Shown here: positions 3,497 through 22,678 of the stretch, piece after piece | Position numbering within the stretch: position 1 is the stretch's first letter | Layout of the letters: each line of letters begins with the position of its first letter | Assembly: GCA_000017645.1 (NCBI GenBank) | Contig: CP000781.1 | Location: 620,001 to 684,000 of the forward strand | Length of the DNA: 64,000 bases | Source: Xanthobacter autotrophicus Py2 | Lineage (GTDB): Bacteria; Pseudomonadota; Alphaproteobacteria; Rhizobiales; Xanthobacteraceae | Direction: 5' to 3' | Made by a program: the position numbers and the translations under genes | The notes under the pieces: generated by a model | Told to the model about the DNA's origin: nothing | What the model saw: the letters and a program-made list of their open reading frames with translations, nothing else | Databases searched by the model: none

Positions 3497-3549
3497 GTCT
3501 TCTCCGTCATGGAAAACTTGACGCTGATTTTCCAGCGCCATATTTTATA

Positions 3550-3566
3550 GACATGTATCTCATGTC
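3550..3566. promoter_or_regulatory. Palindromic operator between HTH gene and CBASS operon
   Basis: GACATG-N5-CATGTC, a perfect 6-bp inverted repeat with a 5-base spacer. Further copies of the half-site lie close by: CATGTC over the HTH start (3494-3499), GACATG at 3573-3578, and a full GACATGTC at 3624-3631 over the likely CD-NTase start. Position between divergent genes and repetition of the half-site suggest binding by the adjacent HTH protein. Confidence 0.55.
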
Positions 3567-3626
3567 GCCAAAGACATGGGCAAGCTAAATCCCGGTGGCC
3601 GCGCCACTCCAGAGGAACTTAAAGAC

Positions 3627-4925: not shown

Positions 4926-5409
4926 CGGCGCGCGCTCGCCCGACGCCCAGCTCAAGGCGATGGCCACCCAGTGGCCGGACTTCCTGGGAAAGAGGCTGGG
5001 GGACGGCACATTGGTTTGGCGGGGGCCGCTGCGGCCGAAGGCCAGGCTGTATGAAGTATTCCTCTTCTGGAAGCCCAGCGCGATGACGCTGCCCTACGTG
5101 ATGGTCATCGACCCGCCGCTGGAGCCGCGCCCCGGCGGCACCTTCGCCGAAATCCCGCACCTGATCTATGACGCGAGCAATCCGTCCAGCTCTGGCCTGT
5201 GTCTGTTTGATCCCCAAGGCGGCGAGTGGTCCGCCGCGCGTTTGATCGCGGAAACGACGATTCCCTGGACCGCCGAATGGCTTGCCTATTACGAGCTATG
5301 GCACCTGACCGGCCAATGGCTCGCGCCCGGCGTCGGTTATGAGAGCGTGGCGCGCATGCACGCGGCGGACGAGGAGATCATCCGGATGGTGAAAGCCGAT
5401 GTTCACTGA
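4915..5409 (+). CDS. E2-like conjugating protein of short type II CBASS
   Basis: A 164-residue protein whose core SSGLCLFDPQGGEWSAA followed by TTIPWTAEWLAYYELW and LTGQW is typical of the E2-like proteins of short type II CBASS. The likely catalytic cysteine is C96. In this subtype an E2-like protein without E1 or JAB partners acts on the CD-NTase C-terminus to prime it. No E1 or JAB gene is present here, as expected. The start is ATG 4915; the gene overlaps both neighbours by 11 bases, which indicates tight translational coupling of a three-gene operon. Subtype assignment rests on gene content and motifs. Confidence 0.83.
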   Translation: MKTDGARSPDAQLKAMATQWPDFLGKRLGDGTLVWRGPLRPKARLYEVFLFWKPSAMTLPYVMVIDPPLEPRPGGTFAEIPHLIYDASNPSSSGLCLFDPQGGEWSAARLIAETTIPWTAEWLAYYELWHLTGQWLAPGVGYESVARMHAADEEIIRMVKADVH

Positions 5410-6430
5410 CCGCCGTGCGAACAGCCTGCCAACCCGCCGCGTGCGCCAACCCTGGCCGGCGGACAGGCCCTTCAAAATCCTCTCGCTCGACGGCGGGGGG
5501 ATCAGGGGCATCTACACCGCTGAAATCCTGCGGCGTTGTGAAGAGAGTTTTTGCGGCGGCGCGCCTGTGGCGCAGCATTTCGACATGATCGCCGGCACAT
5601 CGACCGGCGGCATCATCGCCCTCGGATTGGGCCTGGGCATACCGACCGCCGAGATAACCGGCTTCTATCACGATGATGGCCGGAAGATATTTCCGCCGCT
5701 GCCGGATGGATGGATCGGCCGGGTCCGCCGATTCCTGCGGTCCCTCACCGGGCCGAAGCTGATTCACGAAGAGCTGGAAGAGGCTCTGAAGCGCCGGTTC
5801 ACCGACCATCTTCTCGGCGACTCCATGACCCGGCTGGTCATTCCGGCCTTCATGATGCCGAAGACTGAAATCGCCGTCTTCAAGACCGATCATCACGCGG
5901 ATTTCCGGAACGATCACGCGACCCCGATGTGGAAGGTGGCGCGGGCGACCTCGGCCGCGCCGACCTATCTCAAGGGGCTTGAACACGAACCGAGCGGCCG
6001 GATTTTCATCGACGGCGGCGTATGGGCCAACAATCCGGTCATGGTCGCGCTCGTCGATGCCATCACCGCCTACGATATCAGTTTCGACCAGGTGGAAATT
6101 CTCAGCATCGGGACCGGCAATGCGCCCTTCGCCCTGCGTAAGCCCGCCGTATTCCGGGGTCTGATCGCGTGGCGGGAAGCAATTAAAGCGGCGATGTTCC
6201 TGACCACCGACAACGCGACAGCGCAGGCAAAGCTGCTGCTCGGGCCAGAGCGCTGCCTGCGTATCGAGCCCGCCGAAGCGGATGCGGGCATCGAGATGGA
6301 CGACTATGACGAGGCGTTTGCGCGCCTGCCGGACCGCGCAGCGGAACATTTCGAGGGCCGGCGCACCGAGATTTCCACGTTCTTCGGGCAGAAGGTGTTG
6401 CCACGCGAGCGGCAGTACTCCGGCAAGTAG
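5399..6430 (+). CDS. capV: Patatin-like phospholipase effector CapV
   Basis: A 343-residue patatin-fold lipase. It shows the oxyanion loop GGGIRG (32-37), the nucleophile elbow GTSTG (66-70, Ser68), and the catalytic DGG (205-207) in RIFIDGGVWANNP. CapV enzymes are activated by the cyclic nucleotide made by the CD-NTase and degrade the host inner membrane, killing the infected cell. It is the last gene of the CBASS operon and overlaps the E2 gene by 11 bases. All catalytic elements are present, so the effector appears intact. Confidence 0.88.
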   Translation: MFTDRRANSLPTRRVRQPWPADRPFKILSLDGGGIRGIYTAEILRRCEESFCGGAPVAQHFDMIAGTSTGGIIALGLGLGIPTAEITGFYHDDGRKIFPPLPDGWIGRVRRFLRSLTGPKLIHEELEEALKRRFTDHLLGDSMTRLVIPAFMMPKTEIAVFKTDHHADFRNDHATPMWKVARATSAAPTYLKGLEHEPSGRIFIDGGVWANNPVMVALVDAITAYDISFDQVEILSIGTGNAPFALRKPAVFRGLIAWREAIKAAMFLTTDNATAQAKLLLGPERCLRIEPAEADAGIEMDDYDEAFARLPDRAAEHFEGRRTEISTFFGQKVLPRERQYSGK

Positions 6431-6951: not shown

Positions 6952-8814
6952 TTACGACAGATTGTCGATGCGCTCCCTGACAAGGCGCTGCATTTCGGTG
7001 ACCGCTTCAACCGCCACCGGAGAGTTTGTCAGCAGCGCCGGAAGGGTGGCGGCGTCGAGAGTAGCCCCGAGCGCGCGGGTCATCTCGTCGATGGCCTCGT
7101 CGGCCGCCGCCGCCTTAACGCCGGCTGTCGCCGCAAAGGCCCTGAATTCGGATCGGCGCAGGCGGTCGTCCTTGCCGGCGAGCTTGAGCGCCATGCGGTC
7201 GCGCGCCAGCCGCGGGAATACGCGCGTTGTCACCGCGTCGTAAAGCGGGGCCATGCGGACGCTTGTAAAATGGTCGCTTCCGGGTTCGGCGATCTTTAGG
7301 AGCGCCAGATTTTTGAGATGCATGTCGCCGTCGGCGATCAGCCACGCGAACAGAGCGCGCCGGAAGACGATGAGCAGGTCTTCGTCAGGTGCGGTTGACA
7401 GCGGCCGCACGGCGCGGGCGACGCGCTCCATGGTCCCGTCATACTTGGCTTCGGTGGGCAGGCCGAGGACCGAGCAGAAATCCTCCAGCGCCAGCAGGCG
7501 CGTGTCGTTGGCGCCGCTCCTGATGTCGAAACGCTCGACGAGCAGCGCCGGGGGCATGCCGTCCGGCATGGGGACAAGCGCCATGGCCGGCGTCTCGAAG
7601 CCCGCCGCCGCGCCGAGGGCGAGCGCCTGCCATTCGACCACGGGGAGGATTTCAAAGCCACTGGTGCCGGCGGGTTTGAGAATATGCGTGAAGGGCTCTT
7701 TTGTGCTGGCCGTCAGGGTGCCGTCCGGGCCGAGGAACATCGGGGCTTTAATCTGGATGCCCGAAAGGCGCGGCGTTTCGCTGCTTGCGAAAATCGCGGC
7801 CAGATTGCGTTCGAAGCTCTCTTCGATCGGGCCGCGTCCGGGGCCGGCGTACCGCCCGGTGAAGACGCCGTCCTCTGAATAGCGCGCCAGCGGCGTTGTC
7901 AGGACGTCAGCCGGCAGGCTGGCAAGCTCGCTGGGGCGCTCGGCGATCGTGATATTCGACATGTAGCGCCTGCCGGATTTCAGGAGCGCGCGTTCGTCGC
8001 GGTCGTGAAGCACGGACTCAAGCCAGCCTTCCGGCAGCAGGGAGACGATAAAGGGCGGCAGCTTGCCGGGGGTCGTCTGCCGGATCAGGGGTGGACCGTG
8101 CCAGTCCTCATCGCGCCAGCGCCACTCGAAGCCGTCATGGGTCAGTTGCCCGACCGGCGCGCCGTGCCATGCGACCGTAAGATCGAGCGCAGCCTCGTTC
8201 CGCACCGGCGCGGCGGCTGGCCGGCGCAGGAGAAATCGTTCGGCGTGTTCGCCTTCGCGGTACCATTGATTCTCGCGGGCAAGAGTCCAAACCGCGTCGG
8301 CAGCGCCCTGCGGCGTTCCATATTCCTCGATCAGACGCTGCGCGATTTGCTCCCGCATCGTTTCGTCGAGCGCCGCGGCATGCTCGCTCCTGATCCGGAA
8401 AGCCTCCAGGAAACGCTGCCTGATCGAGGACACGTCGATCCGGAATTCGCCCATACCGTCATCGATAATGGCGGGCGCGACCGAAGGATGTTCAGGCGCA
8501 GCATTCTGGATGATTTCCAGCGACCGCAGACGGGTGCGCTGGATGCGTCGCCCGCTCAGGAAAAGGCGGCCATCGCGGGTCGGGCCGAGCAGCACGGCGC
8601 TTGCGCCGGACAGGTAGGCTCGTGGATAGAGATAGTGGGCAATGCGGACAGCGTGCCGCGTGACTGTCGCGTCAGCATCATCCCCGGCATCGACATAGAT
8701 ACCGCGCATGAGCTGCACCAGCCGGCCTGTCTCGGCCAGGTAGTGGCTCCGGGTCTTGTCGATGGTCTCGCCTACGAGGTGAAGGGGCAAAATTCTAACT
8801 TTCGCGTATGTCAC
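6952..8814 (-). CDS. AbiEi-like N-terminus fused to HipA-family kinase
   Basis: A 620-residue fusion. The first about 200 residues (LVQLMRGIYVDAGDD, then YLSGASAVLLGPTRDGRLFLSG) resemble the AbiEi-type antitoxin/winged-helix region of type IV systems. The rest is a HipA kinase: SGIQIKAPMFL near 352, HILKP with K380, LVERFD (425-430), catalytic DGDMHLKN (495-502) and PLYDAV with metal-binding D526. HipA kinases phosphorylate an aminoacyl-tRNA synthetase or another host protein and arrest growth. No separate hipB is adjacent, so the N-terminal domain may act as the built-in DNA-binding antitoxin. The annotated GTG start lies inside a palindrome; a TTG nine codons downstream is an alternative. 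Confidence 0.8.
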   Translation of the reverse strand: MTYAKVRILPLHLVGETIDKTRSHYLAETGRLVQLMRGIYVDAGDDADATVTRHAVRIAHYLYPRAYLSGASAVLLGPTRDGRLFLSGRRIQRTRLRSLEIIQNAAPEHPSVAPAIIDDGMGEFRIDVSSIRQRFLEAFRIRSEHAAALDETMREQIAQRLIEEYGTPQGAADAVWTLARENQWYREGEHAERFLLRRPAAAPVRNEAALDLTVAWHGAPVGQLTHDGFEWRWRDEDWHGPPLIRQTTPGKLPPFIVSLLPEGWLESVLHDRDERALLKSGRRYMSNITIAERPSELASLPADVLTTPLARYSEDGVFTGRYAGPGRGPIEESFERNLAAIFASSETPRLSGIQIKAPMFLGPDGTLTASTKEPFTHILKPAGTSGFEILPVVEWQALALGAAAGFETPAMALVPMPDGMPPALLVERFDIRSGANDTRLLALEDFCSVLGLPTEAKYDGTMERVARAVRPLSTAPDEDLLIVFRRALFAWLIADGDMHLKNLALLKIAEPGSDHFTSVRMAPLYDAVTTRVFPRLARDRMALKLAGKDDRLRRSEFRAFAATAGVKAAAADEAIDEMTRALGATLDAATLPALLTNSPVAVEAVTEMQRLVRERIDNLS

Positions 8815-11437: not shown

Positions 11438-12484
11438 ATGTCGAGACAGCTAAAACTAACGAAGTTTGCAAATCTCTCGATATCCGACCCTTTTTTCGAC
11501 AGCCTGAAGGAGGGATATGAGGAGTTCCCGGATTGGTTCGCAAGCAAGCGCGATGAGGATGTATATATAGTGCACGATGGTTCTGAGTTATCCGGAATGG
11601 TATACTTAAAACTAGAGGTCGGAGCGGTAAACGACGTCGTACCGAGTTTGCCCCCGAAGAGATGGCTGAAGGTGGGGACGCTGAAAATTATAGGTCGGGG
11701 GACAAAGTTAGGGGAGCGTGTTTTAAAGAAAATATTCGATACGGCATTATCTGTTGACGCGGACGGAATTTACGTCACCGTTTTCGAGCTGCACGCCACA
11801 TTGATTGAACTTTTTACAAATTATGGATTCGTTGAAGTAGGCTTAAAGGCCACCAGAAATGGCGTAGAACGGGTCTTTGCGCGGGACCTAAATAGCATAT
11901 CTGGAGATCTGAAAGCAGATTATCCCTTTATAAATTTGCACAATCAGAGTGCATGGTTATTGGCTATCTATCCGGAATTTCATACTCGCCTTCTTCCCGA
12001 TTCGATTTTGAATAATGAGCCCCTACAAATCATTCAGGACGTATCGCACAGCAATACGATACATAAAGTGTACATTGCTCGCTTGGCTCTGACGCGAATG
12101 CGCCGAGGAGATGTGGTTATATTTTACCGCACGACCGATCACGTGGCACCGGCGCGTTTCCGTTCAGTTGTAACGTCTGTCTGTGTGGTGGAGGAAGTGC
12201 GCCCGAAGCGAAGCTTCGCTTCGCTTGACGAGTTCCTTGCCTATACGCGGCCCAGAAGCGTGTTCGCCGACGACGAGCTACGTGATTGGTATGCCGAGCG
12301 GAGAATGGCAGTGGCAAAGTTGACATACAACGCAGCTTTTAATAGGCGCATCACGCGTGGACAGCTCATCGATGATGGGTTGATCTCAGAGCAGCCGAGG
12401 TGGGATCTCCGCGCTCTGACACATAGCCAACTGAGAGATATCCTGAGCCTTGGCGGGGTAAATGCGCGCCTAATTGTCGATTAA
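11438..12484 (+). CDS. GNAT acetyltransferase fused to a PUA-like (ASCH/EVE-type) domain
   Basis: A 348-residue protein from ATG 11438, chosen for the strong GGAGGAGGGGGAG just upstream. Residues about 1-155 are a GNAT fold: FDSLKEGYEEFPDWFASK, then WLKVGTLKIIGRGTKLGERVLKK, with RGTKLGE as the acetyl-CoA loop, and LIELFTNYGF. Residues about 165-345 form a PUA-like domain (NTIHKVYIARLALTRMRRGDVVIFYR, then SVVTSVCVVEEV). The whole aligns with the GNAT and C-terminal parts of the PIN-GNAT-PUA protein at 19930-21456 but lacks the PIN nuclease. GC content is clearly lower than the surroundings, a sign of transfer. Substrate unknown; tRNA, nucleotide or protein targets are all possible. Confidence 0.75.
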   Translation: MSRQLKLTKFANLSISDPFFDSLKEGYEEFPDWFASKRDEDVYIVHDGSELSGMVYLKLEVGAVNDVVPSLPPKRWLKVGTLKIIGRGTKLGERVLKKIFDTALSVDADGIYVTVFELHATLIELFTNYGFVEVGLKATRNGVERVFARDLNSISGDLKADYPFINLHNQSAWLLAIYPEFHTRLLPDSILNNEPLQIIQDVSHSNTIHKVYIARLALTRMRRGDVVIFYRTTDHVAPARFRSVVTSVCVVEEVRPKRSFASLDEFLAYTRPRSVFADDELRDWYAERRMAVAKLTYNAAFNRRITRGQLIDDGLISEQPRWDLRALTHSQLRDILSLGGVNARLIVD

Positions 12485-12881
12485 ATCGGTATACGTCGAG
12501 CGTATACTCGATGGAACGAAGCGTTTCGAATTTCATAGGCGGACTTTTAGGAGAACAGATGTCAAGTCTGTAGTGATATATGCCACCAATCCTGTTGGAA
12601 AGATCGTAACGGAGTTTGATATCGATGTGATTATAGCGTGTAGCCCGCTAAATTATGAGAGGAGACATGCAACTTTTCAGGAACCAGCAGGGATGTATTC
12701 GACGAGTATTCGAGGGTAGGGCACGGGGTTCGCCCTTCAAATTCCCGCGCTTGGTTGTCTTCCCGACCCAGTATCTCCCCGAGATCTTATCTCTGATTTT
12801 ACGGCGCCGCAGTCATATATGTATATGGAGAGATATTCTTATGCCAGCAGCCGACTTGACCAACTTTTTGAGGTGCAATAG
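12462..12881 (+). pseudogene. Decayed ASCH-domain gene
   Basis: From ATG 12462 the frame reads MRA, stop (TAA 12471-12473, one base from TTA), then LSIKSVYVERILDGTKRFEF and VVIYATNPVGKIVTEFDIDVI, a clear ASCH start. After 12646 one base is missing; the shifted frame reads AKL-stop-EETCNFSGTSRDVFDEY, where the stop TGA (12656-12658) replaces an expected TGG. Two further single-base losses near 12705 and 12718 restore the original frame, which ends FTAPQSYMYMERYSYASSR to TAG 12881. The protein would have been about 140 residues, without an HTH. It overlaps both neighbours, so it sat in a three-gene operon. Clustered lesions could also reflect assembly error. Confidence 0.7.
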
Positions 12882-13428
12882 CGTTTGTATTTTGGTATTT
12901 GGCATATCCGGATCAGGGAAAACGACCGCCTGCAGAAACGCTATGAGTGCTGTGGCGGGTTTGGAATACGTCAGCGCCAGTGAGCTCCTCCGAGGCGCCT
13001 CTAGGGCCTCGAGTGAGAGCTTTGGTGGCCGATCTGCGCGGGATGTGGCGGCAGACCAGTTCCTGCTCGCCGAGCTTTTGGCCGAGTTCCGGAGTGAGCA
13101 CGGCGGAAAGTCCATAATCATCGATGCTCACGCCACGATACCCAACCGGGAAGGGCTGCTGACCGTTCCCCTTGAAGTTATAGCTGCGCTCAAGCCCAGC
13201 GCGATAGCCTTGATCGAAAAAGACGCATTTCAGGTTCTCGCGCAGCGTAAAGGCGATGCGACACGGCAGAGACCCTCAATATCCCTGCAGCAGGTAGTCG
13301 CAGAAATGGCGGCTGAACGGTTCGCTGCTGAAAGTTATGCACACTCCCTGAACGTCCCGTTCGGCCTTGTGCGAACGGGCGCCCACGAGTCTCTATTAGA
13401 CTTTATTGAAACTGCGCTGGCAGTATAA
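12841..13428 (+). CDS. Adenylate-kinase-like P-loop nucleotide kinase (first copy)
   Basis: A 195-residue P-loop protein. Walker A is GISGSGKTT (21-29); the second motif is IIIDAHATIPN with D95 and H97. QVLAQRKGDATRQRP supplies the lid-type arginines. The same plan (P-loop, D-G/A-H-S/A, arginine-rich lid) recurs in the kinase at 19394-19933, so the two are paralogues. ATG 12841 overlaps the ASCH pseudogene; a TTG near 12868 is an alternative start closer to the P-loop. Likely a nucleoside or nucleotide kinase or a regulatory ATPase; substrate unknown. It is intact although its operon partner has decayed. Confidence 0.7.
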   Translation: MPAADLTNFLRCNSVCILVFGISGSGKTTACRNAMSAVAGLEYVSASELLRGASRASSESFGGRSARDVAADQFLLAELLAEFRSEHGGKSIIIDAHATIPNREGLLTVPLEVIAALKPSAIALIEKDAFQVLAQRKGDATRQRPSISLQQVVAEMAAERFAAESYAHSLNVPFGLVRTGAHESLLDFIETALAV

Positions 13429-13932
13429 AACACCCTGCGCTAAAATATTGGAAGGACTCTCGTTGTATCCCAATTCAGACATATACGGAGTGTAAACTCC
13501 AAATTTTTCAGAAGTCATTTCAAACCCGTAGTACTCAAATATCCGTTCAAACTGCGGGAGTTTGTCCTTGGAAACCGTTAGGTGAGGCTTGTCTACGTCG
13601 AGCCAGCGCAGCAGTCCATCAAAAAGGCGAACACCGATTCCTCGGCCATGGTGAGTGGGGGAGACACGAACAGTGCAGATCTTCCGTTCACCCAGCTCAT
13701 TTTTGGCGATACCAAGCCCAACAAGGCGTCCATCACGTTCCGCGCGGATGATATGTCGCGTGCCGTTGTGCAATCCGGGCACAACCCGCCGACGATACCA
13801 GTTCATGATATCAGGATAATCGTTGGAAAGGGGCAGGAGAAATTCCAGTGCTTCAGAATGCGCCACATGCGTCGAAGCTTCGACCGGAGCCGACAGCCGG
13901 GCTCGTTTTAAGGCGAAGTCACTGCTTGGCAT
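13396..13932 (-). CDS. Stand-alone GNAT acetyltransferase
   Basis: A 178-residue GNAT protein (ATG 13932; a longer start at 13980 would overlap more of the upstream gene). Visible core: YPDIMNWYRRRVVPGLHNG, RHIIRAERDGRLVGLGIAKNE, KICTVRVSPTHHGRGIGVRLFDGLL with the acetyl-CoA loop HHGRGIG, and FERIFEYYGF. It resembles the GNAT domains of the two PUA-fused proteins nearby (KICTF/KICTV, LLDYYGF/IFEYYGF), so three related acetyltransferases lie within 10 kb. It overlaps the stop of the membrane-protein gene by 14 bases and ends tail to tail with the kinase, overlapping it by 33 bases. Confidence 0.7.
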   Translation of the reverse strand: MPSSDFALKRARLSAPVEASTHVAHSEALEFLLPLSNDYPDIMNWYRRRVVPGLHNGTRHIIRAERDGRLVGLGIAKNELGERKICTVRVSPTHHGRGIGVRLFDGLLRWLDVDKPHLTVSKDKLPQFERIFEYYGFEMTSEKFGVYTPYMSELGYNESPSNILAQGVLYCQRSFNKV

Positions 13933-15082
13933 CACCGGCCCCTTCCGTGGGTGCAGCGGACCGCCTCGGCGACTGAGCATTTGATTCCTCTACGTGCCTT
14001 TGAGTATCTTGACTGCTCGAAAGCATATACTGCAACCCTGAAGCAGTCAAATTCCCGACCACTCCAAAAAGGAATGCAATAGCAAGATAGACAGCCAAAA
14101 TTTTGAAGCCAGTTCTACGCGTCTGAATGCGGACAAACGCAGAGAAATCCAGTATTTCGGAAACGTCATTTTTCTTCCAATGATACACCAGCATTCCACT
14201 TGGAATTCCTTCTTGTACATAATTATTCCATATATGATTCTCGAGAATTCGAAATTTGTGAAATTGCGCACTAGAAGTAGACAATTGAGATCGTATTGGA
14301 ATGGCAGTGAGAAATGCAACGGTAGTAAGCTTCACTTGTCCGCTGCCATTTCTGCCGTGCTTCATCATCCGTTCGACGGCATCGGGTAGCGTTCGTGCTT
14401 CGTTAAGTCGGAAATCAACATACTCTATTTCCTCGAATCCGCTTTGAAAAAACCTTTCTGGAGTTTCTATCGTTTGGATGAATGGATTGGATGGTGGAAT
14501 AATAAAACGCAATCGAAAGTACACGGGTACTGGAGGCCTGCTTTCATCGACGCAGGTGTCTCTCACCGCACTTTCTGAGATTTTGAATAATGTTCCCTCA
14601 TTCTCTGATGTTATCGTGAGTTCGGAACTGTGGATTCGTTCGCCATCTAACACAAATGTGTGTACACGGCAGAATGGCTCGTTGGTAGTTGCGTGTTGCA
14701 ACTCAATGCAGCGTGGGCCTCCAACGTCGGGGGCAATCGATCGCAAGGGCATGTTGAAGATACCCTGGCAAATTGCTGTATTTTTAAAATATTTTGAACA
14801 ATCTGAAACCGATTTTATGTTTAGATTCGCAGGAATGTATATGTTGACCGTTTCTACTAATTGAGGCGATTCGAGCATAACTCCCACTTCAACGAAGTCG
14901 TTTTCTGCCCGTTTATTCGTGGATGTACGCTCGCCCGAAAGGCGCCAATAATTAAAGTGTGCCTCCATTGAGGAGTTAGCGGCAGACTGTTGTCCAACAC
15001 ACCAGACAGCCATACTAACATTAGCGGCCATCACTCCCCCCGCGATGATGCTCATCTCCCAGACGGAAGGTGATATCTCCAT
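13919..15082 (-). CDS. Unidentified two-pass membrane protein
   Basis: A 387-residue protein from ATG 15082 (an upstream in-frame start at 15142 is also possible). A hydrophobic segment lies at about residues 9-28 (MSIIAGGVMAANVSMAVWCV) and a second near the C-terminus (ILAVYLAIAFLFGVVGNL). The 300 residues between would be on one side of the membrane. It contains several cysteines but no motif I recognise. GC content is low, like the flanking kinase cluster. It is translationally coupled to the following GNAT gene, and its place in a defence-rich region makes a membrane-acting partner conceivable, which is speculation. Confidence 0.55.
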   Translation of the reverse strand: MEISPSVWEMSIIAGGVMAANVSMAVWCVGQQSAANSSMEAHFNYWRLSGERTSTNKRAENDFVEVGVMLESPQLVETVNIYIPANLNIKSVSDCSKYFKNTAICQGIFNMPLRSIAPDVGGPRCIELQHATTNEPFCRVHTFVLDGERIHSSELTITSENEGTLFKISESAVRDTCVDESRPPVPVYFRLRFIIPPSNPFIQTIETPERFFQSGFEEIEYVDFRLNEARTLPDAVERMMKHGRNGSGQVKLTTVAFLTAIPIRSQLSTSSAQFHKFRILENHIWNNYVQEGIPSGMLVYHWKKNDVSEILDFSAFVRIQTRRTGFKILAVYLAIAFLFGVVGNLTASGLQYMLSSSQDTQRHVEESNAQSPRRSAAPTEGAGDAKQ

Positions 15083-15125
15083 TTGTGATGCGCGTCCAGA
15101 CGAAGGGGATTGGCGCCGTAACCAG

Positions 15126-15348
15126 CTACGAAAGCTCGTCATCCGAATGTTGCATCAGGCCAGCCCGGTGTTGCAATCGGCCATCGATGGAGAGGTGGTG
15201 ATTGAACCGTTTGTCGGCTGCGGCATTGATCCTGATCGTCCGCTCGCGCAGCCTGCAGCTGGGCGACCGCCACACCTTCGATCAGCTGGGACGCGATTGT
15301 CTCGGTCGGCAGCGCGATATCGAGATCGAATGAGGCGGCAATAGCCAT
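15126..15348 (-). pseudogene. Possible small frameshifted gene
   Basis: The frame starting at 15348 reads MAIAASFDLDIALPTETIA and SQLIEGVAVAQLQAA, protein-like, then turns implausible after about 15245. A neighbouring frame then reads RTIRINAAADKRFNHHLSID and ends at TAG 15126-15128. A single indel would join them into about 73 residues. It lies just downstream of the IS3-split gene on the same strand. Family unknown. Confidence 0.25.
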
Positions 15349-15394: not shown

Positions 15395-15940
15395 TCATTC
15401 AAGCCGGAAGTTGCGGCCACCCGCGGGTATTTCCCCTGGCTGGCCAAACTCACGCTGTATCCAACTAGGCAGCTCAGAATGGTGGATCACGGGCCAACCA
15501 CCGGCCTCAGCCTGTCGCATTTGCACCGTGCTCAGCGACCTGTTTGTCACGACGATATCGACTTCCTGACAGACGTTGCGGTCTCGCCGCAGGATCGCGT
15601 CGAGCCGCACGGATGTGTCTGCCACCAGCATTGAGATCACGCCGCCCTGCTCTTCGAACAGCATCGCTTCGCCGTCACCTCCACGCAGATCCCAACCCCA
15701 TGCTGCCATGACCGTAGCGACATAGTCAGCATAGGCTTCGACTCCCGGGTGGGCTGCGCTTACACCAAAGGCCAAGCAGCGAACATCGGCGCGTGCGCTG
15801 GACCGTTCAAGCCCGATCATCTCGATCGAATATTGACAGCTGCCGAGCCGCACATGTTGGGACGATCCTTGAGGGAGAGGATGTGGCCAGAGACAGACAA
15901 GCTTCGCGTTGTCAGTGAATGTCCATTCCGGGCTTAGCAT
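15395..15940 (-). pseudogene. C-terminal part of IS3-split protein, restriction-endonuclease-like
   Basis: This segment (181 residues from its first ATG) is the downstream part of the gene starting at 18465. If the IS3 element and one CAG copy are removed, the frame continues without a break: VKDL, then LIRVIYS, then MLSPEWTFTDNAK. The C-terminal 100 residues (YADYVATVMAAWGW, GEAMLFEEQGGVISMLVA, DIVVTNRSLSTVQMRQAEAGGWPVIHHSELPSW) resemble an Mrr-type restriction-endonuclease fold, including the VTNxxxS-AEAxG-HxxxL pattern of that family. The usual D/ExK triad is not clear, so it may be a degenerate or binding-only version. Confidence 0.6.
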
Positions 15941-16024
15941 TGAATATATGACGCGAATGAGCAGTGAACCGCCCCTAGATTCCTGGACGCCTTCTTCCCT
16001 AAATTTTTAGGCAAGGAGGCCCCG

Positions 16025-16300
16025 ATGGGCAAAGCGAACTTCACCGAGGACTTTAAGCGCGACGCCGTCGTTCAGATCACCGAACGGGGCTATCCGGTTG
16101 CGGAGGTGGCGGCCCGGCTGGGGATCAGCAAGTACTCGCTCTACGAGTGGAGGAAACGGTACGGCAAGCCTGCTGCCGTGGCCCGCGATGACGATCAGGC
16201 CGCTGAGGTTCGCAGGCTGAAGCGCGAGTTGCAGCGCGTGACGGAGGAGCGCGACATCCTAAAAAAAGCGGCCGCGTACTTCGCCAAGGATGCAAAGTGA
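16025..16300 (+). CDS. IS3-family transposase OrfA
   Basis: A 91-residue HTH protein (FTEDFKRDAVVQITERGYPVAEVAARLGISKYSLYEWRKRYG) with a leucine-zipper-like coiled coil after it (EVRRLKRELQRVTEERDILKKA). An A7 run at 16261-16267 is the likely -1 slippery site that makes the OrfAB fusion transposase. Its stop overlaps the orfB start. Confidence 0.9.
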   Translation: MGKANFTEDFKRDAVVQITERGYPVAEVAARLGISKYSLYEWRKRYGKPAAVARDDDQAAEVRRLKRELQRVTEERDILKKAAAYFAKDAK

Positions 16301-17172
16301 AGTACGCGTTCATCGCCGAGCATCGCCTTCTGTTTTCGATCCGTGCCATGTGTCGGTGCCTGCGTGTCCAGCCTAGCGGCTTCTACGCTTGGCTGAAGGA
16401 CCCGCTGAGCAAGCGCGCGCAGGAAGACCAGCGACAGACCGAGCTGATCCGCGCGGCATGGAGCGAGAGCGGCAAGGTCTATGGCTATCGCAAGCTTCAC
16501 GACGATCTGGCGGACATGGGCGAGAGCTGCTGCCCCAACCGGGTTGCGCGGCTGACGCGGCTTGCCGGCATCCGGGCGCAGATCGGCTACAGGCGGCGCC
16601 CCGGCCAATATGGAGGCAAGCCATCCCTGGCGGTCGACAACACGCTCGATCGCCGGTTTGACGCGGAGGCGCCTGACAAGGCCTGGGTGACCGACATCAC
16701 CTACATCCGCACCCACGAAGGCTTCGCCTATCTGGCGGTCGTGATCGACCTCTTCTCCCGCCGCGTCGTCGGCTGGTCCATGCAGGCCCGGCAGACGACC
16801 AACGTCGTGCTTCAGGCGCTGCTGGCCGCCGTCTGGCGACGCAAGCCGAAGGGCCGTGTGCTGGTGCATTCGGATCAGGGGAGCCAGTTCACCAGCATGG
16901 AGTGGGCTTCGTTCCTGAAACACCACGATCTGCAGCCCTCGATGAGCCGTCGCGGGAACTGCCATGACAACGCTGTGGCCGAGAGCTTCTTCAACCTGCT
17001 CAAGCGCGAGCGCATCCGCCGCAAGGTCTACCGCACGCGAGACGAGGCACGCCGGGACGTGTTCGATTACATCGAGATGTTCTACAACCCCACCCGCAAA
17101 CACGCACGCAACGGGATGCTGTCGCCCATCGAGTTCGAACGGCAGCACAAAGCGACCCCCGAAGGCGTCTAG
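16297..17172 (+). CDS. IS3-family transposase OrfB (DDE integrase core)
   Basis: A 291-residue rve-type integrase. The N-terminal HTH_21 region (YGYRKLHDDL) is followed by the DDE core: first Asp in AWVTDITYIRT, second in HSDQGSQFTS, and Glu in NCHDNAVAESFFNLLKRE. It begins with GTG in the -1 frame relative to orfA. Full length, so the element is probably active. Confidence 0.92.
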   Translation: MKYAFIAEHRLLFSIRAMCRCLRVQPSGFYAWLKDPLSKRAQEDQRQTELIRAAWSESGKVYGYRKLHDDLADMGESCCPNRVARLTRLAGIRAQIGYRRRPGQYGGKPSLAVDNTLDRRFDAEAPDKAWVTDITYIRTHEGFAYLAVVIDLFSRRVVGWSMQARQTTNVVLQALLAAVWRRKPKGRVLVHSDQGSQFTSMEWASFLKHHDLQPSMSRRGNCHDNAVAESFFNLLKRERIRRKVYRTRDEARRDVFDYIEMFYNPTRKHARNGMLSPIEFERQHKATPEGV

Positions 17173-17187
17173 AAAACTCGGGGCGGT

Positions 17188-18465
17188 TCACAGATCCTTT
17201 ACGCTCATCTCTTTCAGATACCGGGTGGCGCCCACTAGACCCATAGCATGCGCGCCCGCTGTGTCCTGCAGGAGCGTTCGTCCGCGGGATGAACAACACA
17301 GGTCGGCAAGAGCGGATACGCTAGCGCGTGCGAACCGGCTGGCGGCGTCCGAGCGGGCAAGACCAATGTAATGCTTCCCAAATCGCATCGGTCTATGGTT
17401 GGCGATCACCCAGACATAATCGGGACCATGCCTGTCTTCGACGATGACCTGGGCTGGGACCGCTTGGCGGCGTTCCGGATCGCTGCCAAGGGGCCGGATG
17501 TTGACGAGATGCCGGATCACTCCATCCCGCTTATCGCCGAAGAGACGGCGGCCCGCCTCGATATCCTTTTGGGCACTGCCATGGATGACGACGTGCAGTT
17601 GCGGCGGCGCGGGGCTATCCCGCAGCTCGGCGCTAGGGATTGTCAATTGCCCTTCAAGGGCGTTGCTCTCGGAGCGCACCCGAACATCGGCATTGACGAG
17701 TGGTCCGACCGCGTTCCAGATGCGGCGCACAGTCCAGCGTCCGACGCCGCCATCGCCGGTGACCGTCCAGGTGCGGACGCGCTTCTTCACCTGGGAGCCA
17801 GATGCCTGCAGCGGATGAAGTCTGAAGGCGGTGATGCCCCATGCCGATGCGATTTTCGCGGTTGGAGATAGGTCAGGCTCACCCCTGCTGAGAAGCGGCG
17901 CCGGGCAAAATATATGGCAGGTCTCACCAACGCTCCGGGTCCAAATATCAGAAAGCATCTGCCGGTTCGCCGGACGGTCCAAACGACGTCCGAAATGCTG
18001 GCGGATCAGCGGCAGAAGCATATCGGTGTCGCGCCAGATGGCCGCGCCTGCCCCGATTTGCTTCGTCATCGCCGTATAGATCTCCTGAGTCTTTTCAAAC
18101 AGCACGTCTTCCAACTCACAAAGCCGAAGGAGATCCGCCGCACTAGCTGGCCACATCTCGATCAGATCAGAAGACAGAAGCACCGGCGCACTGCGGCGCA
18201 ACTCCTGCTTGGTGCCGACATGGATATCGCCAGCAGCGTCAAGAAATGCCCAGATCGCCGGATCACCAACTTCGGCGGTCACAGGCCGGTCTGCTTGTCG
18301 CTCCAGCCGCGGTTCCCGAGCAATGTCTTCGAAGCCTTCGATGCGCCAGAAGCCGTCCAGCAGTTGGACCTGACACAAATTTGCACCCGGGTGCCGGCTG
18401 AACAGCGGAACGACGAAACCGACAGCCGTGCCGGCTGGACAGGCGAAACGTTCAAGAAGTGGCAT
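17188..18465 (-). pseudogene. N-terminal part of IS3-split large protein of unknown function
   Basis: Reading starts at ATG 18465 (MPLLERFACP), overlapping the upstream gene by 14 bases. After 425 residues it ends at a TGA that lies inside the IS3 terminal repeat, so the stop is supplied by the IS. The frame resumes exactly on the other side, giving about 613 residues in the intact form. This part has no motif I recognise; it is rich in Trp, Arg and beta-like segments (WRIEGFEDIAREPRLERQ, WTVTGDGGVGRWTVRRIWN). With its upstream partner it forms a two-gene unit in a defence-rich region. Confidence 0.65.
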
Positions 18466-19264
18466 CGATCTCGCCCGATTCGAACAGCCCAATCTCGACA
18501 TAGTAGCGATAGCAGAGGTCGGTGATCGTGGTCACATATTCGCTGGGGCGGGTCCGACCATGGACCATGTAGGGAAGCGGCTGGATACCGAGCCCCTTGA
18601 GCTTTGCGCCAGTGGTTCCTTTGTCGATGAAGGGCGCAGGCAAAATGACCGCCCGCACATGATCGATCAGCGACACGGGAGACGCCGTCTGGAGCTCGAT
18701 CGCGGCCCCTCTGCTATCCAGCGAGTTGGCGTCGCGCGCGGCGATGATCGACTTGTAACTTATCGCCTCCATTTGCTCCGGTGGCACATCCCGCGATGCG
18801 GCAGGCTCTGCACGCAGATAGGCGACGGGATCGCCGAAAAAGGCAGAGATCAATTTGCCCGGGGTGCTGGTCCTCACATCCAATCCAAAGTCACCGATCG
18901 TCATTTGGTGGTGGAGATGCGTCGAATAGAAGCCGCGACTGAAGGCTCCGGAGTCGAAGGGAAACATTCGCCGAACCAAGCCTGCCAGATCGGTCTTGAG
19001 GATAAGCAGAATCGGCAAATAGTGCGCGAGCGATGTCGGCTCGGCATCCGCATTGGCGCGGTAGGAAGGCCGGCCATAGAAGAAATAAAGTAGAGACTCG
19101 CCAGTGAAGATATCGCAAGGATGCGGCTTTAGCTCGCCATCCTCGATTGCATTCAGCAACTTGAATGCGTCCGAGCCGTGAACCAAAGGCAACGCCGGCT
19201 TTGCCTCCAATGCGCCCGCGACCAACTCACGGAACCTAGTGCGTCCGACATCCAGCTTATGCAC
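18452..19264 (-). CDS. Unidentified protein with a LLYFFYGRPSYR motif
   Basis: A 270-residue protein. The most distinctive segment is CDIFTGESLLYFFYGRPSYR near residues 50-69. Later segments are FPFDSGAFSRGFY, SYKSIIAARDANSLDSR, AVILPAPFIDKG and TTITDLCYRYYVEIGLF. The Y-F-F-Y-G-R-P-x-Y-R string and the fold suggested by spaced Tyr/Arg/Glu residues recall ADP-ribosyltransferase-like proteins, but I cannot assign it. It overlaps the IS3-split gene by 14 bases, so the two were one operon; loss of the partner may leave it without function. About 130 bases separate it from the kinase operon upstream. Confidence 0.6.
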   Translation of the reverse strand: MHKLDVGRTRFRELVAGALEAKPALPLVHGSDAFKLLNAIEDGELKPHPCDIFTGESLLYFFYGRPSYRANADAEPTSLAHYLPILLILKTDLAGLVRRMFPFDSGAFSRGFYSTHLHHQMTIGDFGLDVRTSTPGKLISAFFGDPVAYLRAEPAASRDVPPEQMEAISYKSIIAARDANSLDSRGAAIELQTASPVSLIDHVRAVILPAPFIDKGTTGAKLKGLGIQPLPYMVHGRTRPSEYVTTITDLCYRYYVEIGLFESGEIDATS

Positions 19265-19393: not shown

Positions 19394-19933
19394 TCATCCG
19401 ATCAGCTCTAGTATCCGATCGATCCTGCTGTCCGCGACATAGATAAATGGGCGTTCGATATCTTTGGCTATGCGCCGGGCCGCCGCCTCGGCTATCTCTT
19501 GATGGCCCTGCAAGGTTGCGACATCGCGATACGGTCTTTCTCGCCCAACATCGGCTCGACGCCTCTTCGCCACTTGATAAGGATCGGCTGCTAGAAAGCA
19601 GATTGCATCGAGTTCAAGGGCGCCGAAGACCGAAGACGGGATCTCGATGAGCCCGTCGCGTCCGTCAATGACGCTGTGTCCGTCGAAGACAATTGGAAGA
19701 TCTGTCATCGCCGCCTCCCGCTGGAAGGCAGCGATCATGAGGGCCTGATTGTCAATCACGGCCCCAGTGCGCAGCGCCTCCGAACTGTCCGGATTCTGCG
19801 CCCTGTAGGCTTGCTCAGCCTTAATCAGGCTACTCGCCTGAAGGTGAATCAGCGGTAGGGTCTCACGGATCCTGCCGATGAGTGTGGACTTCCCCACACC
19901 AGAAAGACCAAGGACGGCTATTCGCCTGCTCAT
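19394..19933 (-). CDS. Adenylate-kinase-like P-loop nucleotide kinase (second copy)
   Basis: A 179-residue P-loop protein. Walker A is GLSGVGKST (9-17); the second motif is IVFDGHSVIDG with D84 and H86. KRRRADVGRERPYRD is a lid-like arginine stretch. It aligns along its length with the kinase at 12841-13428. ATG 19933 overlaps the stop of the PIN-GNAT-PUA gene in an ATGA, so it is the third gene of a coupled operon. The D-x-H motif in place of a plain Walker B suggests a nucleoside/nucleotide kinase or a sensor ATPase; the substrate cannot be told. Confidence 0.75.
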   Translation of the reverse strand: MSRRIAVLGLSGVGKSTLIGRIRETLPLIHLQASSLIKAEQAYRAQNPDSSEALRTGAVIDNQALMIAAFQREAAMTDLPIVFDGHSVIDGRDGLIEIPSSVFGALELDAICFLAADPYQVAKRRRADVGRERPYRDVATLQGHQEIAEAAARRIAKDIERPFIYVADSRIDRILELIG

Positions 19934-21456
19934 ACCGTGAATCCGAAGGCACCCTGCCGCAGGACCGACATTTGCTGAGCCGGCAGAAGACTCTTGATGG
20001 ACTGGGGCGGACGCGCTGCGAAGACGCCGCTGCTTGTGAGTGCAGCCAGGGACATAGGAGGCTCCAGATGCCCAGCAAGAAGAAAGTTTATCACTTTGAC
20101 CGGGTTGCTCGCGGTCGCGGCCATGTGCCTAAGCTGCGTGTCGCTGTAGACGGATCGGCCACCAGCAAGTTGACGCAGCTCTTCAGTAGAGTGCGCGAGC
20201 TTCATCTCCTCGAACACTCCAACCGTCGTAATGGCCTGCGAGGGTTGAATCTCAGACTTGCCCTTGTAAAACAACAGCAGTGCGCCAGGTTGTGAAATGT
20301 TTGCAGGCGCCCGACACAGATAGACTTTACGGATCGTGTTGCCGGGCCTAAGGAACCCGGTATCGCCGAACAGGCTAAGCTGGGTGCGGCTCATTAGTTC
20401 CGGGAATAGGATTTCATGAAATTCCTCCTGGATCGGGATCGCGTAAGCGGCGACACCATCGCCGGTTGCGAACCTTGGATAGTTTTCACGCGCAAGGTCG
20501 AATAGCGAGATGCCGGGAACCGGCATGAGCCGTCCGCGACTGATTGCCTTTTCGTAAACCCGCTCACCATTCGACTTGTCATAGGTATGGCGGAAACCAT
20601 AGTAATCTAGGAGCGCTATCAGAGTCTCTTGCCCAGAAAACGTCGTGATATAGACAACATCATGGCTATTTGATTGAGCATACCACAAAACCTGTTTGAG
20701 CAGGAGTTCTCCGAGCTTCACACCCCGACTTTCGGCACGCACCTTAAAGGTGCAGATCTTGAGGATCTTTTTTCCTGGGAGCGTGGCGTCAGTGTCGGCC
20801 GGCTTTTCATCCTTGCGTACGACAAGGCCGGCGATCCGACCCTCGTCCATCACAACCCAGCACTTTCTCATCGGCTTGACACATTTCTCGCGCCACCAGT
20901 CGTCGAAGGGTGGATAGTTTCTGCGTAGGGTCACAAAAATAGGGTCATCCTGCGAGATGGTGTTTGCCTCCACCTCCTCCACAGCCGGGAAGACGACGGC
21001 AACCGCTTCGTAAGTTGTCAGCAGGAAGGAGACGGCATCAGCAACGTATAGAACGCGAGCGCCGAACGTCGAAGAGATCCGTTGCGCGCGTTCATGAAGG
21101 CCTTGATCCTCGGTCACGAGGAAGTCGGCTACGCCGATCTCCAGAGCATGGAGCAACGTCGCGTCGACGAGATCATTGGGGCGGCGGATACGACCGTACT
21201 TGGCTTCGAGCACGGCCTGATCGATCCCCGCCATCTTCTTCACAACCGGGAATTTGTGAATCTTGCTCAGCGAGACGCGGCGACGTGCCTCGTCCTTGTC
21301 CCGCCGGATGTCGTCGATCGCCGCCTCATGCACGAAAATCTCAACGCCGTGCCGCCCCGCAAGCTGTTGTAGGGAAGCAAAGTGCGGCGCCACCTCGGCA
21401 TGGTCTTCCAGGCAGATGAAGACATTGGTGTCAATCAGGAGTCTGGGCGCGCTCAT
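19930..21456 (-). CDS. PIN nuclease - GNAT acetyltransferase - PUA-like domain fusion
   Basis: A 508-residue three-domain protein from ATG 21456 (MSAPRLLIDTNVFI); a longer start would cover more of the upstream gene. Residues 5-150 are a PIN domain with acidic positions D9, E44, D95/D98 and D112/D117, so it should cut RNA. Residues 170-310 are a GNAT fold (FDDWWREK, ILKICTFKVRAESRGVKLGE, LIALLDYYGF). Residues 320-508 are a PUA-like domain of ASCH/EVE type (NTIRKVYLCRA, GALLLFYKGKSEIQP, ITTVGVFEEM). It overlaps the HTH-ASCH gene by 26 bases and the kinase by 4. The fusion suggests recognition of a modified nucleotide or RNA coupled to RNA cleavage or acetylation. Confidence 0.82.
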   Translation of the reverse strand: MSAPRLLIDTNVFICLEDHAEVAPHFASLQQLAGRHGVEIFVHEAAIDDIRRDKDEARRRVSLSKIHKFPVVKKMAGIDQAVLEAKYGRIRRPNDLVDATLLHALEIGVADFLVTEDQGLHERAQRISSTFGARVLYVADAVSFLLTTYEAVAVVFPAVEEVEANTISQDDPIFVTLRRNYPPFDDWWREKCVKPMRKCWVVMDEGRIAGLVVRKDEKPADTDATLPGKKILKICTFKVRAESRGVKLGELLLKQVLWYAQSNSHDVVYITTFSGQETLIALLDYYGFRHTYDKSNGERVYEKAISRGRLMPVPGISLFDLARENYPRFATGDGVAAYAIPIQEEFHEILFPELMSRTQLSLFGDTGFLRPGNTIRKVYLCRAPANISQPGALLLFYKGKSEIQPSQAITTVGVFEEMKLAHSTEELRQLAGGRSVYSDTQLRHMAATASNPVKVINFLLAGHLEPPMSLAALTSSGVFAARPPQSIKSLLPAQQMSVLRQGAFGFTV

Positions 21457-22222
21457 ACAGAAGGGCTTCCTGCATCTTGGGCGTCGCGTAGAGGAAGGAT
21501 TGCGGTGGTTCGAAGCTAAATCGATCTCTGAGTTCGCTGAGGCCCAAAGGACGAGGCAGTGGCCTGCCACGCCTTAGCTCGATGGCGAAAGCGCGGTCAA
21601 CGCCGCCAAAATAGGCGTCGAAATGTTTTCGGGTAATGCATGCGCGATCGCCAAAGGCCTTCCATATCTCCAGCGGCGTCCGCTGGTGCACTTCGCCAAT
21701 CTCGGCGATGCCCGACAGGGCGCGCGTCGGGCTCGTCTCATAGATGAGGGCCGTCGTGCCGGCGGGCACCGACATGGGGAAGCGGCGACGCAACTCGACC
21801 GTTTTCTCTCCGCTTGCGATCTTCCGGCTGTATTCCGGTTTGACACTGAAAACGACGTCCGGGTGGGGTGGAAGCAGGTTGTCGCCGATAATCGGTAGCA
21901 GAAGCTGCTTCTCGTCGATATTATCGAAGAGATAGCCAGCCTCGCGCAGGCTGTTGATCATCGTAGCCGCGCAGTCGAACTGAGCGTGAATTCGCAGCGT
22001 CGCGCCCATTGCGCCTAGGTAGTCGCGAAGCGTCGACACGTGGATGTCCTTGCGGCTTTCAAGCCGAGTCACCGCGGATTGAACGATTTGAAGGCGCTCA
22101 GCGACTTGGGCTTGGGTCAGTCCCGCTAGTTTCCGGATCTCACGAAGGCGATGACCAATGTGACCATCCGTGGCATCGGGGCCGCCCGTGAGCGGTTCAA
22201 ATACCTTGCCAACGACCTTCAT
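21431..22222 (-). CDS. XRE helix-turn-helix fused to an ASCH domain
   Basis: A 263-residue regulator-like protein from ATG 22222, preferred over 22234 because GAGG sits just upstream. Residues 24-75 are an XRE HTH (LREIRKLAGLTQAQVAERLQIVQSAVTRLESRKDIHVSTLRDYL). Residues 123-245 are an ASCH domain (FSVKPEYSRKIASGEKTVELRRRF, ALIYETSPTRALSGIAEI, FEPPQSFLYATP). It leads an operon with the PIN-GNAT-PUA and kinase genes and probably autoregulates it, with the ASCH domain sensing a nucleotide or RNA ligand; that role is inferred. The ASCH part is homologous to the decayed gene at 12462-12881, which lacks the HTH. Confidence 0.82.
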   Translation of the reverse strand: MKVVGKVFEPLTGGPDATDGHIGHRLREIRKLAGLTQAQVAERLQIVQSAVTRLESRKDIHVSTLRDYLGAMGATLRIHAQFDCAATMINSLREAGYLFDNIDEKQLLLPIIGDNLLPPHPDVVFSVKPEYSRKIASGEKTVELRRRFPMSVPAGTTALIYETSPTRALSGIAEIGEVHQRTPLEIWKAFGDRACITRKHFDAYFGGVDRAFAIELRRGRPLPRPLGLSELRDRFSFEPPQSFLYATPKMQEALLYERAQTPD

Positions 22223-22678
22223 TTTTCCTCGCACGCATATGAAACTGCGAATCTATAATATTACACTAAAGGCATATGCGTCCATGGATTTTGTGCGCCG
22301 CACGATAGATCACCTCTCCCGACGTGATATGCGGGAGAAGCCTACCTCGAGCGAGAGCATGGACCTACGTGTGCTCCAGCGAATGATAGGATTCGCGATT
22401 AGTTGTTGATCCATCGAGCGATGACAAAGGGGTGCGAGGCAATATGTCCGCTATCGAGCAACAAGCCAGCTTCTGCTCTTGGCGCACTCCAGAGGTAATG
22501 GTAGCGTCGCCTCCTCTTGGGTCAATGCGGCGGGATACCATCCATCGGAGCGAGAAGTTCATCGGGATTCCGGTGGTATTCCGTCCGCGCGATCGAGAGT
22601 GAGAGGTTGGACCAGATTTCCGTGACGGGTTGAGGGCAGGGAGAGAGGCTCCCGGCGCCCGTCGTGGAGTTTGGTCCC
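22223..22678. other. Boundary between accessory island and ICE core
   Basis: No gene. 22223-22290 is AT-rich and should hold the promoter of the HTH-ASCH operon (TATTAT/TATAGATT near 22250 on the minus strand). The rest has no coding signal until the leader hairpin at 22624. Base composition and gene content change here. Confidence 0.4.
22624..22663 (+). promoter_or_regulatory. Leader hairpin upstream of the DUF932 gene
   Basis: Nested inverted repeat: outer stem GACGGG (22624-22629) with CCCGTC (22658-22663), inner GGGAG with CTCCC. It lies 15 bases before the start codon. A closely similar leader with the same outer stem stands before the ParB-like gene at 24042, so it is probably a shared regulatory RNA or protein site. 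Confidence 0.5.

What the first reader, a model, noticed from the sequence alone, without database searches (positions are those of the whole stretch)
19394..22222. Operon HTH-ASCH / PIN-GNAT-PUA / P-loop kinase: candidate undescribed defence or stress system
Three coupled genes (overlaps of 26 and 4 bases) combine a DNA-binding ligand sensor (XRE-ASCH), a three-domain protein with RNase (PIN), acetyltransferase (GNAT) and PUA-like nucleotide/RNA-binding parts, and an adenylate-kinase-like P-loop protein with a D-x-H motif. This set does not match a toxin-antitoxin or phage-defence family I know by name. PIN plus HTH is toxin-antitoxin logic; the ASCH and PUA domains suggest a modified base or tRNA as the signal; the kinase could make or remove that signal. 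The operon sits in a defence-rich island and a decayed sister copy lies 6 kb away.
Basis: partly seen in the sequence, partly recalled or inferred. Interest (0 to 1): 0.85.

Follow-up and report, generated by a model that had tools for sequence, protein, structure and literature searches.

The report
Self-regulated toxin-like defence operon pair
A three-gene bacterial operon of a type predicted in 2020 as a toxin-antitoxin-like defence system seems to carry its own dedicated DNA switch, and a neighbouring cassette reveals two companion genes, one coding a likely membrane protein, that travel with this kind of system in distant bacteria.

Summary
The operon is real and at the stated place. It is not undescribed: PIN-GNAT-EVE plus XRE-ASCH plus an AAA_17 P-loop protein is the architecture predicted by Bell et al. 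2020, PADLOC holds the first two as candidate PDC-M11, and a GenBank phage record names the PIN-less pair GevT toxin/GevA antitoxin. My searches found no experimental paper. New here: (1) a palindromic operator (AATATTCC-N6-GGAATATT or variant) at a near-fixed place before HTH-ASCH in 48 of 59 relatives at 12/16 or better, in 0 of 69 non-HTH systems, with a recognition-helix residue that switches with the half-site; in this genome it occurs once. (2) The toxin's EVE and its partner's ASCH domains are end-to-end homologues. (3) The 'decayed sister copy' is another deep clade and part of a five-gene cassette with a separate GNAT and an unnamed membrane-type protein, seen in 8 loci from four bacterial classes and viral contigs. 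Most likely: an autorepressed toxin-antitoxin-like defence module; a nucleotide signal acting on a membrane protein is possible but unproven.

The parts
21431..22222 (-). HTH-ASCH protein (263 aa): XRE/HigA-like DNA-binding domain plus ASCH domain; proposed antitoxin and autorepressor
   Evidence: PDC-M11B 1.1e-27; ZmASCH 6.5e-20; HigA3 2.1e-6
19930..21456 (-). PIN-GNAT-EVE protein (508 aa); proposed toxin/effector. PIN about 1-150, GNAT about 155-307, EVE about 330-508
   Evidence: PDC-M11A 1e-117; model pLDDT 87.3
19394..19933 (-). AAA_17 P-loop protein (179 aa) with the fold of archaeal adenylate kinases
22257..22278 (-). Operator-like imperfect palindrome CATATGCCTTTAGTGTAATATT before HTH-ASCH; its core 22258-22277 is the only match with up to 1 mismatch in the 5.6 Mb genome
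22255..22284 (-). Promoter-like site (TGGACG, 18 nt, TATTAT) whose spacer is filled by the operator
   Evidence: 3 such sites found in the region against 1.2 +- 1.1 in shuffles, so weak alone
11438..12484 (+). PIN-less GNAT-EVE gene of the second cassette (348 aa), other deep clade
   Evidence: PDLC04419 2.2e-124; phrog_6345 4.3e-123
12474..12719 (+). ASCH gene of the second cassette, short frame (81 aa; 133-139 residues matched in 7 related loci)
12793..13428 (+). AAA_17 P-loop protein of the second cassette (start uncertain)
13396..13980 (-). Separate GNAT protein (179-194 aa, start uncertain); best PHROG match phrog_13728, which the GNAT domains of both GNAT-EVE proteins also match
13919..15142 (-). 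Unnamed membrane-type protein (conserved part starts near 15034), hydrophobic segment in its C-terminal part; linked to GNAT-EVE systems

Best explanation
The operon is a toxin-antitoxin-like, probably anti-phage module. HTH-ASCH represses its own promoter by binding the palindrome between the -35 and -10 boxes, and holds PIN-GNAT-EVE in check. PIN-GNAT-EVE is the toxic arm: the EVE domain docks it on a modified nucleoside in RNA (most likely tRNA), GNAT acetylates the bound target (most likely the amino group of an aminoacyl-tRNA) and PIN cuts RNA. Since EVE and ASCH are homologues that share the tyrosine known to matter in ZmASCH, the antitoxin may read the same kind of ligand as the toxin; a change of that ligand in infection would shift HTH-ASCH off the toxin and off the operator. 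The adenylate-kinase-like protein sets the level of the nucleotide ligand. Shown by computation: gene set, coupling, operator, helix/half-site covariation, EVE-ASCH homology, conserved active-site residues. Inferred: repression, toxicity, tRNA as target, ligand, kinase substrate, defence.
For: PADLOC PDC-M11A/B. GevT toxin/GevA antitoxin labels on the PIN-less pair in phage PhiR47_2. Operator scoring 12/16 or more in 48 of 59 HTH-ASCH upstreams, all 48 starting at -42 to -74 (54 of 59 at 11 or more), against 3.6% of random 200-base windows of the same loci at 11 or more, and 0 of 69 non-HTH systems at 12 or more (9 of 69 at 11). Lys in 35 of 36 HTHs with TTCC-class sites, Arg in 12 of 14 with TG[AC]C-class sites (Fisher p 9e-9, not corrected for relatedness). 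Single site in the genome. HTH resembles antitoxins HigA3/HigA2. EVE against ASCH profile: prob 94.8, E 5e-8, 134 columns; other domains at most 3.3, 20 column shuffles at most 1.0. PIN D9, D98, D117 60 of 60 and position 49 acidic 60 of 60; GNAT K233, T236, G245, G249 68 of 68; EVE Y397 68 of 68, aligned with ASCH Y161 129 of 129. Foldseek hits of the toxin model include a GNAT entry titled 'bacterial toxin' (7byy, rank 6, E 2.0e-6). Kinase in one open frame with ASCH in L004 and with PIN-GNAT in L060 and L069. Defence neighbours in the window.
Confidence: 0.55

Rival explanations
1. Signal-and-membrane-effector system: kinase and GNAT make or remove a modified nucleotide that EVE/ASCH read, and the membrane-type protein is the executioner, in the manner of CBASS. 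The three-gene operon is then a version that has lost, or shares with its neighbour cassette, the membrane arm.
For: Searches seeded with the membrane-type protein gave 11 distinct records (7 plasmids, 3 genomes including this one, 1 viral contig): all 11 have ASCH and/or kinase beside it and 10 of 11 a GNAT-EVE gene. It directly follows the kinase in four PIN/HTH operons (L027, shortened there, L032, L034, L167). AdkA-like fold of the kinase.
Against: Most (PIN)-GNAT-EVE loci fetched lack it: found in 10 of the 137 loci (L027, L031-L034, L038, L039, L041, L104, L130), though many loci have short flanks. Seeds came from GNAT-EVE-linked members, which favours linked relatives. No signal is known. 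No match in Pfam, PADLOC or NCBIfam for the window's protein nor in PDB; PHROGs none for three members and phrog_8760 at 0.006 for one.
Confidence: 0.2
2. Counter-toxin: PIN-GNAT-EVE removes tRNAs acetylated by phage-borne GNAT-EVE (proposal of Bell et al. 2020).
For: PIN-less GNAT-EVE occur in viral contigs and phage records; both kinds lie close together in the window and in L031, L033, L038, L039, L041, L055, L078 (the second copies in L055 and L078 are diverged) and L200.
Against: In the window, in five of those loci (L031, L033, L038, L039, L041) and in L200 the PIN-less copy has its own membrane-type gene beside it, so it looks like a resident system; PIN-GNAT-EVE keeps its own GNAT residues, not needed for mere removal.
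Confidence: 0.1
3. DNA-base acetylation/modification system read by EVE and ASCH (view of Iyer et al. 2013 as reported in Bell et al. 2020).
For: HTH-ASCH looks like a DNA binder; Bell et al. report ASCH fused to HsdS in Methanohalophilus.
Against: The DNA site found is the operon's own operator, once in this genome; PIN domains are RNases (recalled; also Bell et al.); ZmASCH cleaves ssRNA (abstract of PMC5615036).
Confidence: 0.1
4. Housekeeping stress or metabolic genes without defence role.
For: Closest kinase relatives are metabolic adenylate kinases; ZmASCH is a stand-alone gene kept across its genus.
Against: Patchy: 10 of 398 genomes of the phylum have an M11A match, this one included; found on plasmids and in viral contigs and phage records; in the window near CBASS.
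Confidence: 0.05

Closest known systems
(PIN)-GNAT-EVE / ASCH / AAA_17 operons of Bell et al. 2020 (PMC7641849; passages read)
   Same: Same domains, same gene set, XRE-ASCH mostly in alphaproteobacteria, AAA_17 companion, defence neighbourhood
   Different: The passages read give no operator, no EVE-ASCH relation closer than the superfamily, no separate GNAT and no membrane protein ('transmembrane' occurs 0 times in the main text); figures and supplements not seen
PADLOC candidate PDC-M11 (A+B)
   Same: A = PIN-GNAT-EVE, B = ASCH match strongly
   Different: The kinase matches no PDC-M11 model in that search
GevT/GevA of Escherichia phage PhiR47_2 (PV340567.1)
   Same: GNAT-EVE (46% identical to the window's PIN-less copy) followed by ASCH, 23-base overlap
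   Different: No PIN, no HTH fusion, no kinase found beside it on its strand; the toxin/antitoxin labels are the depositor's
ZmASCH (PDB 5guq; PMC5615036: abstract, passages and one section read)
   Same: ASCH domain of the antitoxin matches at 6.5e-20; the residue equivalent to Tyr47 is invariant
   Different: Stand-alone, no HTH, no PIN-GNAT-EVE within 1.5 kb; the Lys53 position is basic in only 71 of 129
YqfB, ac4C amidohydrolase (PMC6972931; passages read)
   Same: ASCH fold, Lys21 and Arg26 equivalents kept (K140 128 of 128, R145 127 of 129; aligned by eye)
   Different: Nucleophile Thr24 position is Glu in 128 of 129
Archaeal adenylate kinase (AdkA)
   Different: 17-23% identity; NCBIfam PRK04040 48.8 bits against a cut-off of 155

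Membership tests
(PIN)-GNAT-EVE operons (Bell et al. 2020) | GNAT fused to a C-terminal EVE domain, with N-terminal PIN | tested here: met
   Pfam EVE itself gives no hit in this protein
(PIN)-GNAT-EVE operons (Bell et al. 2020) | ASCH gene in the operon, XRE-fused mostly in alphaproteobacteria | tested here: met
(PIN)-GNAT-EVE operons (Bell et al. 2020) | AAA_17 companion gene (often present) | tested here: met
   AAA_17 1.9e-18
PADLOC PDC-M11 | PDC-M11A and PDC-M11B adjacent | tested here: met
Type II toxin-antitoxin | Antitoxin binds its own promoter | tested here: inconclusive
   Conserved operator and helix covariation; binding itself not measured
Type II toxin-antitoxin | Toxin is toxic and is neutralised by the antitoxin | not testable with these tools
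   needs expression tests
YqfB-type ac4C amidohydrolase | Thr-Lys-Glu catalytic triad | tested here: not met
   Thr24 position is Glu143 in 128 of 129; the alignment to YqfB is by the GxKxxxxR motif, by eye, from passages of PMC6972931
Canonical EVE (PF01878) | Pfam gathering score | tested here: not met
   no hit for PIN-GNAT-EVE; 18.9 against 23 bits for the PIN-less copy
Archaeal adenylate kinase | Fold and P-loop | tested here: met
Archaeal adenylate kinase | Equivalog score (PRK04040) | tested here: not met
   48.8 against 155 bits; AMP kinase activity itself is not testable here

The most novel reading that the evidence does not exclude
Probability: 0.12. Interest if true: 0.9.

Novelty: new variant of a known kind. 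Interest (0 to 1): 0.6.

Why it matters
The architecture has stood as an untested prediction (Bell et al. 2020, after Iyer et al. 2013). The operator gives a direct binding assay, the EVE-ASCH homology suggests how one ligand could set both toxin and repressor, and the membrane-type protein and separate GNAT widen the system to five genes in Alpha- and Gammaproteobacteria, Campylobacterota and Bacillota, each with a clear gene-removal test.

Tried and rejected
Rejected: (a) 'undescribed set' - described in PMC7641849. (b) Sister copy as decayed duplicate - different deep clade (quick tree with long-branch warnings, some of which touch the large groups that hold the window's copies; rooted at the midpoint only). 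(c) ASCH as YqfB-like ac4C eraser - nucleophile not kept. (d) ZmASCH as a member of such an operon - stand-alone. (e) Plain BLAST of EVE against ASCH, and of the separate GNAT against GNAT-EVE, found nothing significant; profile comparison (EVE/ASCH) and a shared PHROG (GNATs) are the support. (f) Defence enrichment of flanks: 109 PADLOC families (E 1e-10) hit among 89 flank ORFs, chosen one or so per side from 191 candidates at 48 loci, against 22 families among 79 of 80 ORFs from 20 stretches of this genome. These count families, not proteins, only the first 25 of the 109 are shown, and the control is one genome: suggestive only. Pfam on the same 89 showed no dominant defence family (Fic 3, the rest of the shown list 1-2). 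(g) PDB profile search with the membrane family found nothing at E 1. (h) Literature: PDC-M11 0 papers, GNAT-EVE 1 paper, GevT and GevA no relevant listing (one search matched 16,016 papers, 30 seen), three wider listings without an experimental paper on this system as far as titles and abstracts show; 0 mentions of ASCH, EVE domain, acetyltransferase or GNAT in the main text of PMC9519451.

Fold search notes: the pdb_via list for the 508-residue model is filled by GNAT folds; absence of PIN folds there is not evidence. The 5guq match (rank 48, TMt 0.72) prints no range; that it lies on the C-terminal domain is inferred.
Full report
OBSERVATION. The three coupled minus-strand genes are present at 22222-19394 with 26- and 4-base overlaps. 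Of 8 plasmid regions opened, the 5 that annotate HTH-ASCH, PIN-GNAT-EVE and kinase show exactly the same overlaps; one with a plain ASCH has other spacing. PADLOC models call the second gene PDC-M11A (E 1e-117) and the first PDC-M11B (1.1e-27); Pfam calls the third AAA_17 (1.9e-18). The window is defence-rich: a CBASS-like set with CapH, CapP, cyclase, E2 and patatin effector (2265-6430), a HipA-like gene, and a conjugative coupling protein.

WHAT IS ALREADY KNOWN. Bell et al. 2020 (passages read) describe (PIN)-GNAT-EVE proteins with ASCH, often AAA_17, and XRE-fused ASCH mostly in alphaproteobacteria, near restriction-modification and CRISPR systems, and state that none of the modules had been tested; they refer to Iyer et al. 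2013, which is not held. A GenBank record of Escherichia phage PhiR47_2 labels the PIN-less pair GevT toxin and GevA antitoxin; no paper for it was found. So the three-gene operon itself is a new member of a predicted kind.

EVE AND ASCH ARE HOMOLOGUES. Profile comparison of the toxin's EVE domain (68 sequences) with the partner's ASCH domain (129 sequences) gives probability 94.8, E 5e-8 over 134 columns; EVE against the PIN, GNAT, kinase and HTH profiles gives at most 3.3, and 20 column-shuffled ASCH alignments at most 1.0. Plain BLAST sees nothing. [quoted passage not shown] Against a simple carry-over, the Lys53 position is Arg 48, Gly 37, Lys 23 and others in 129. The YqfB nucleophile Thr24 position is Glu in 128 of 129, so ac4C hydrolysis by that mechanism is unlikely.

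OPERATOR. Upstream of HTH-ASCH there is a palindrome AATATTCC-N6-GGAATATT, or AATATG[AC]C-N6-GT[AC]ATATT in the window's clade. Scored against the first form, of 59 upstream stretches (identical ones removed, near-identical ones kept) 48 reach 12/16, all starting at -42 to -74, and 54 reach 11; random 200-base windows of the same loci reach 11 in 3.6%, letter shuffles in 4.4%; of 69 non-HTH systems none reaches 12 and 9 reach 11. Two of the six at 11 lie elsewhere (-84, -121). Of the five at 9-10, two (L023, L099) have a site of the second form at the usual place; three (L071, L068, L025) have none that convinces. Among 52 different HTH sequences, TTCC-class sites (by one base of the site) go with Lys at one recognition-helix position in 35 of 36 and TG[AC]C-class sites with Arg in 12 of 14; two have other sites. 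This split largely follows the tree, so it is not independent evidence per sequence. In this genome the core occurs once with up to one mismatch, between the boxes of a promoter-like site: this suggests a private autoregulatory switch.

THE SECOND CASSETTE. The GNAT-EVE at 11438-12484 belongs to a different deep clade from the operon's: nearest rows are a viral contig (77% identity), a genome of the same family and rhizobial second copies; the operon's nearest row is Sphingobium sp. AP50 (83% over 351 columns). Beside it lie a short ASCH frame, an AAA_17 gene, a separate GNAT (13396-13980) and a membrane-type protein (13919-15142) without hits in PADLOC, NCBIfam or PDB and with nothing but one hit at E 0.15 in Pfam; PHROGs give nothing for three members and phrog_8760 at 0.006 for a fourth. 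The five gene types recur together in 8 loci: the window, viral contigs L104 and L130, genome G035 (L202), and plasmids of Methylobacterium bullatum (L198), Pseudomonas sp. CIP-10 (L196), Paenibacillus cellulosilyticus (L197) and Nitrosophilus labii (L205, its separate GNAT from the annotation). Searches seeded with the membrane-type protein gave 7 plasmid records, 3 genomes including this one (3 of 385; the 2 of 398 are among them) and 1 viral contig; 10 of these 11 have a GNAT-EVE gene next to it, and the eleventh (G896) has ASCH, kinase and separate GNAT but no GNAT-EVE found. The protein also follows the kinase directly in four PIN/HTH operons (L027, shortened there, L032, L034, L167), follows a PIN-less GNAT-EVE in five rhizobial loci, and follows GNAT-EVE and ASCH in L199 and L200. 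A hydropathy peak of 1.6 or more lies in the C-terminal part (starting at residues 303-417) in 17 of 17 aligned members; that it is a membrane anchor is inferred. All these searches started from GNAT-EVE-linked members, a bias in favour of linkage, and only 10 of the 137 loci carry the protein (many have short flanks).

CO-LOCATION OF THE TWO KINDS. PIN and PIN-less copies lie within 10 kb of one another in the window and in L031, L033, L038, L039, L041, L055 and L078 (the last two second copies are long-branched), and side by side in Rhizobium anhuiense (L200), although an M11A match was found in only 10 of 398 genomes of the phylum.

MECHANISM. I favour an autorepressed toxin-antitoxin-like defence module as stated in Best explanation. 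The step from homology to shared ligand, the tRNA target and the kinase's role are inference. CENSUS NOTE: the 127 genes came from searches led by the window's protein, so their proportions (86 with PIN, 75 with kinase, 125 with an ASCH hit) are not population frequencies; where two systems adjoin, a neighbour's ASCH can be counted for both.

Noticed in passing
window 15395-19264: A two-gene unit of unknown function (about 600-650 aa and about 270 aa proteins) lies convergent to or beyond the kinase end of the operon; homologous pairs follow the kinase in L041 and L200. In the window the larger gene appears as two pieces (437 and 181 aa) on either side of an IS3-like element at 16025-17172 (the IS reading is by eye).
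   Followed up: partly
window 2265-6430: CBASS-like set with CapH/CapP regulators, cyclase (SMODS), E2 and patatin phospholipase.
   Followed up: no
window 6955-8814: 620-aa protein with a HipA-like C-terminal domain (1.1e-39) and a weak AbiEi-like N-terminus (0.0034).
   Followed up: no
L156 and L157: ASCH genes in two genomes of the family of G223 lie directly after about 496-aa frames with only faint GNAT-EVE similarity (20-25 bits): perhaps a diverged partner.
   Followed up: no
L201 7355-15918: Genome G896 keeps membrane-type protein, separate GNAT, kinase and ASCH but has an open frame of 1970 codons instead of GNAT-EVE beside them.
   Followed up: no
L152-L155: ZmASCH, whose RNase activity was published, is a stand-alone gene kept in 4 genomes of one genus (62-100% identity; by the 100% match taken to be Zymomonas) between the same two neighbours.
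   Followed up: partly
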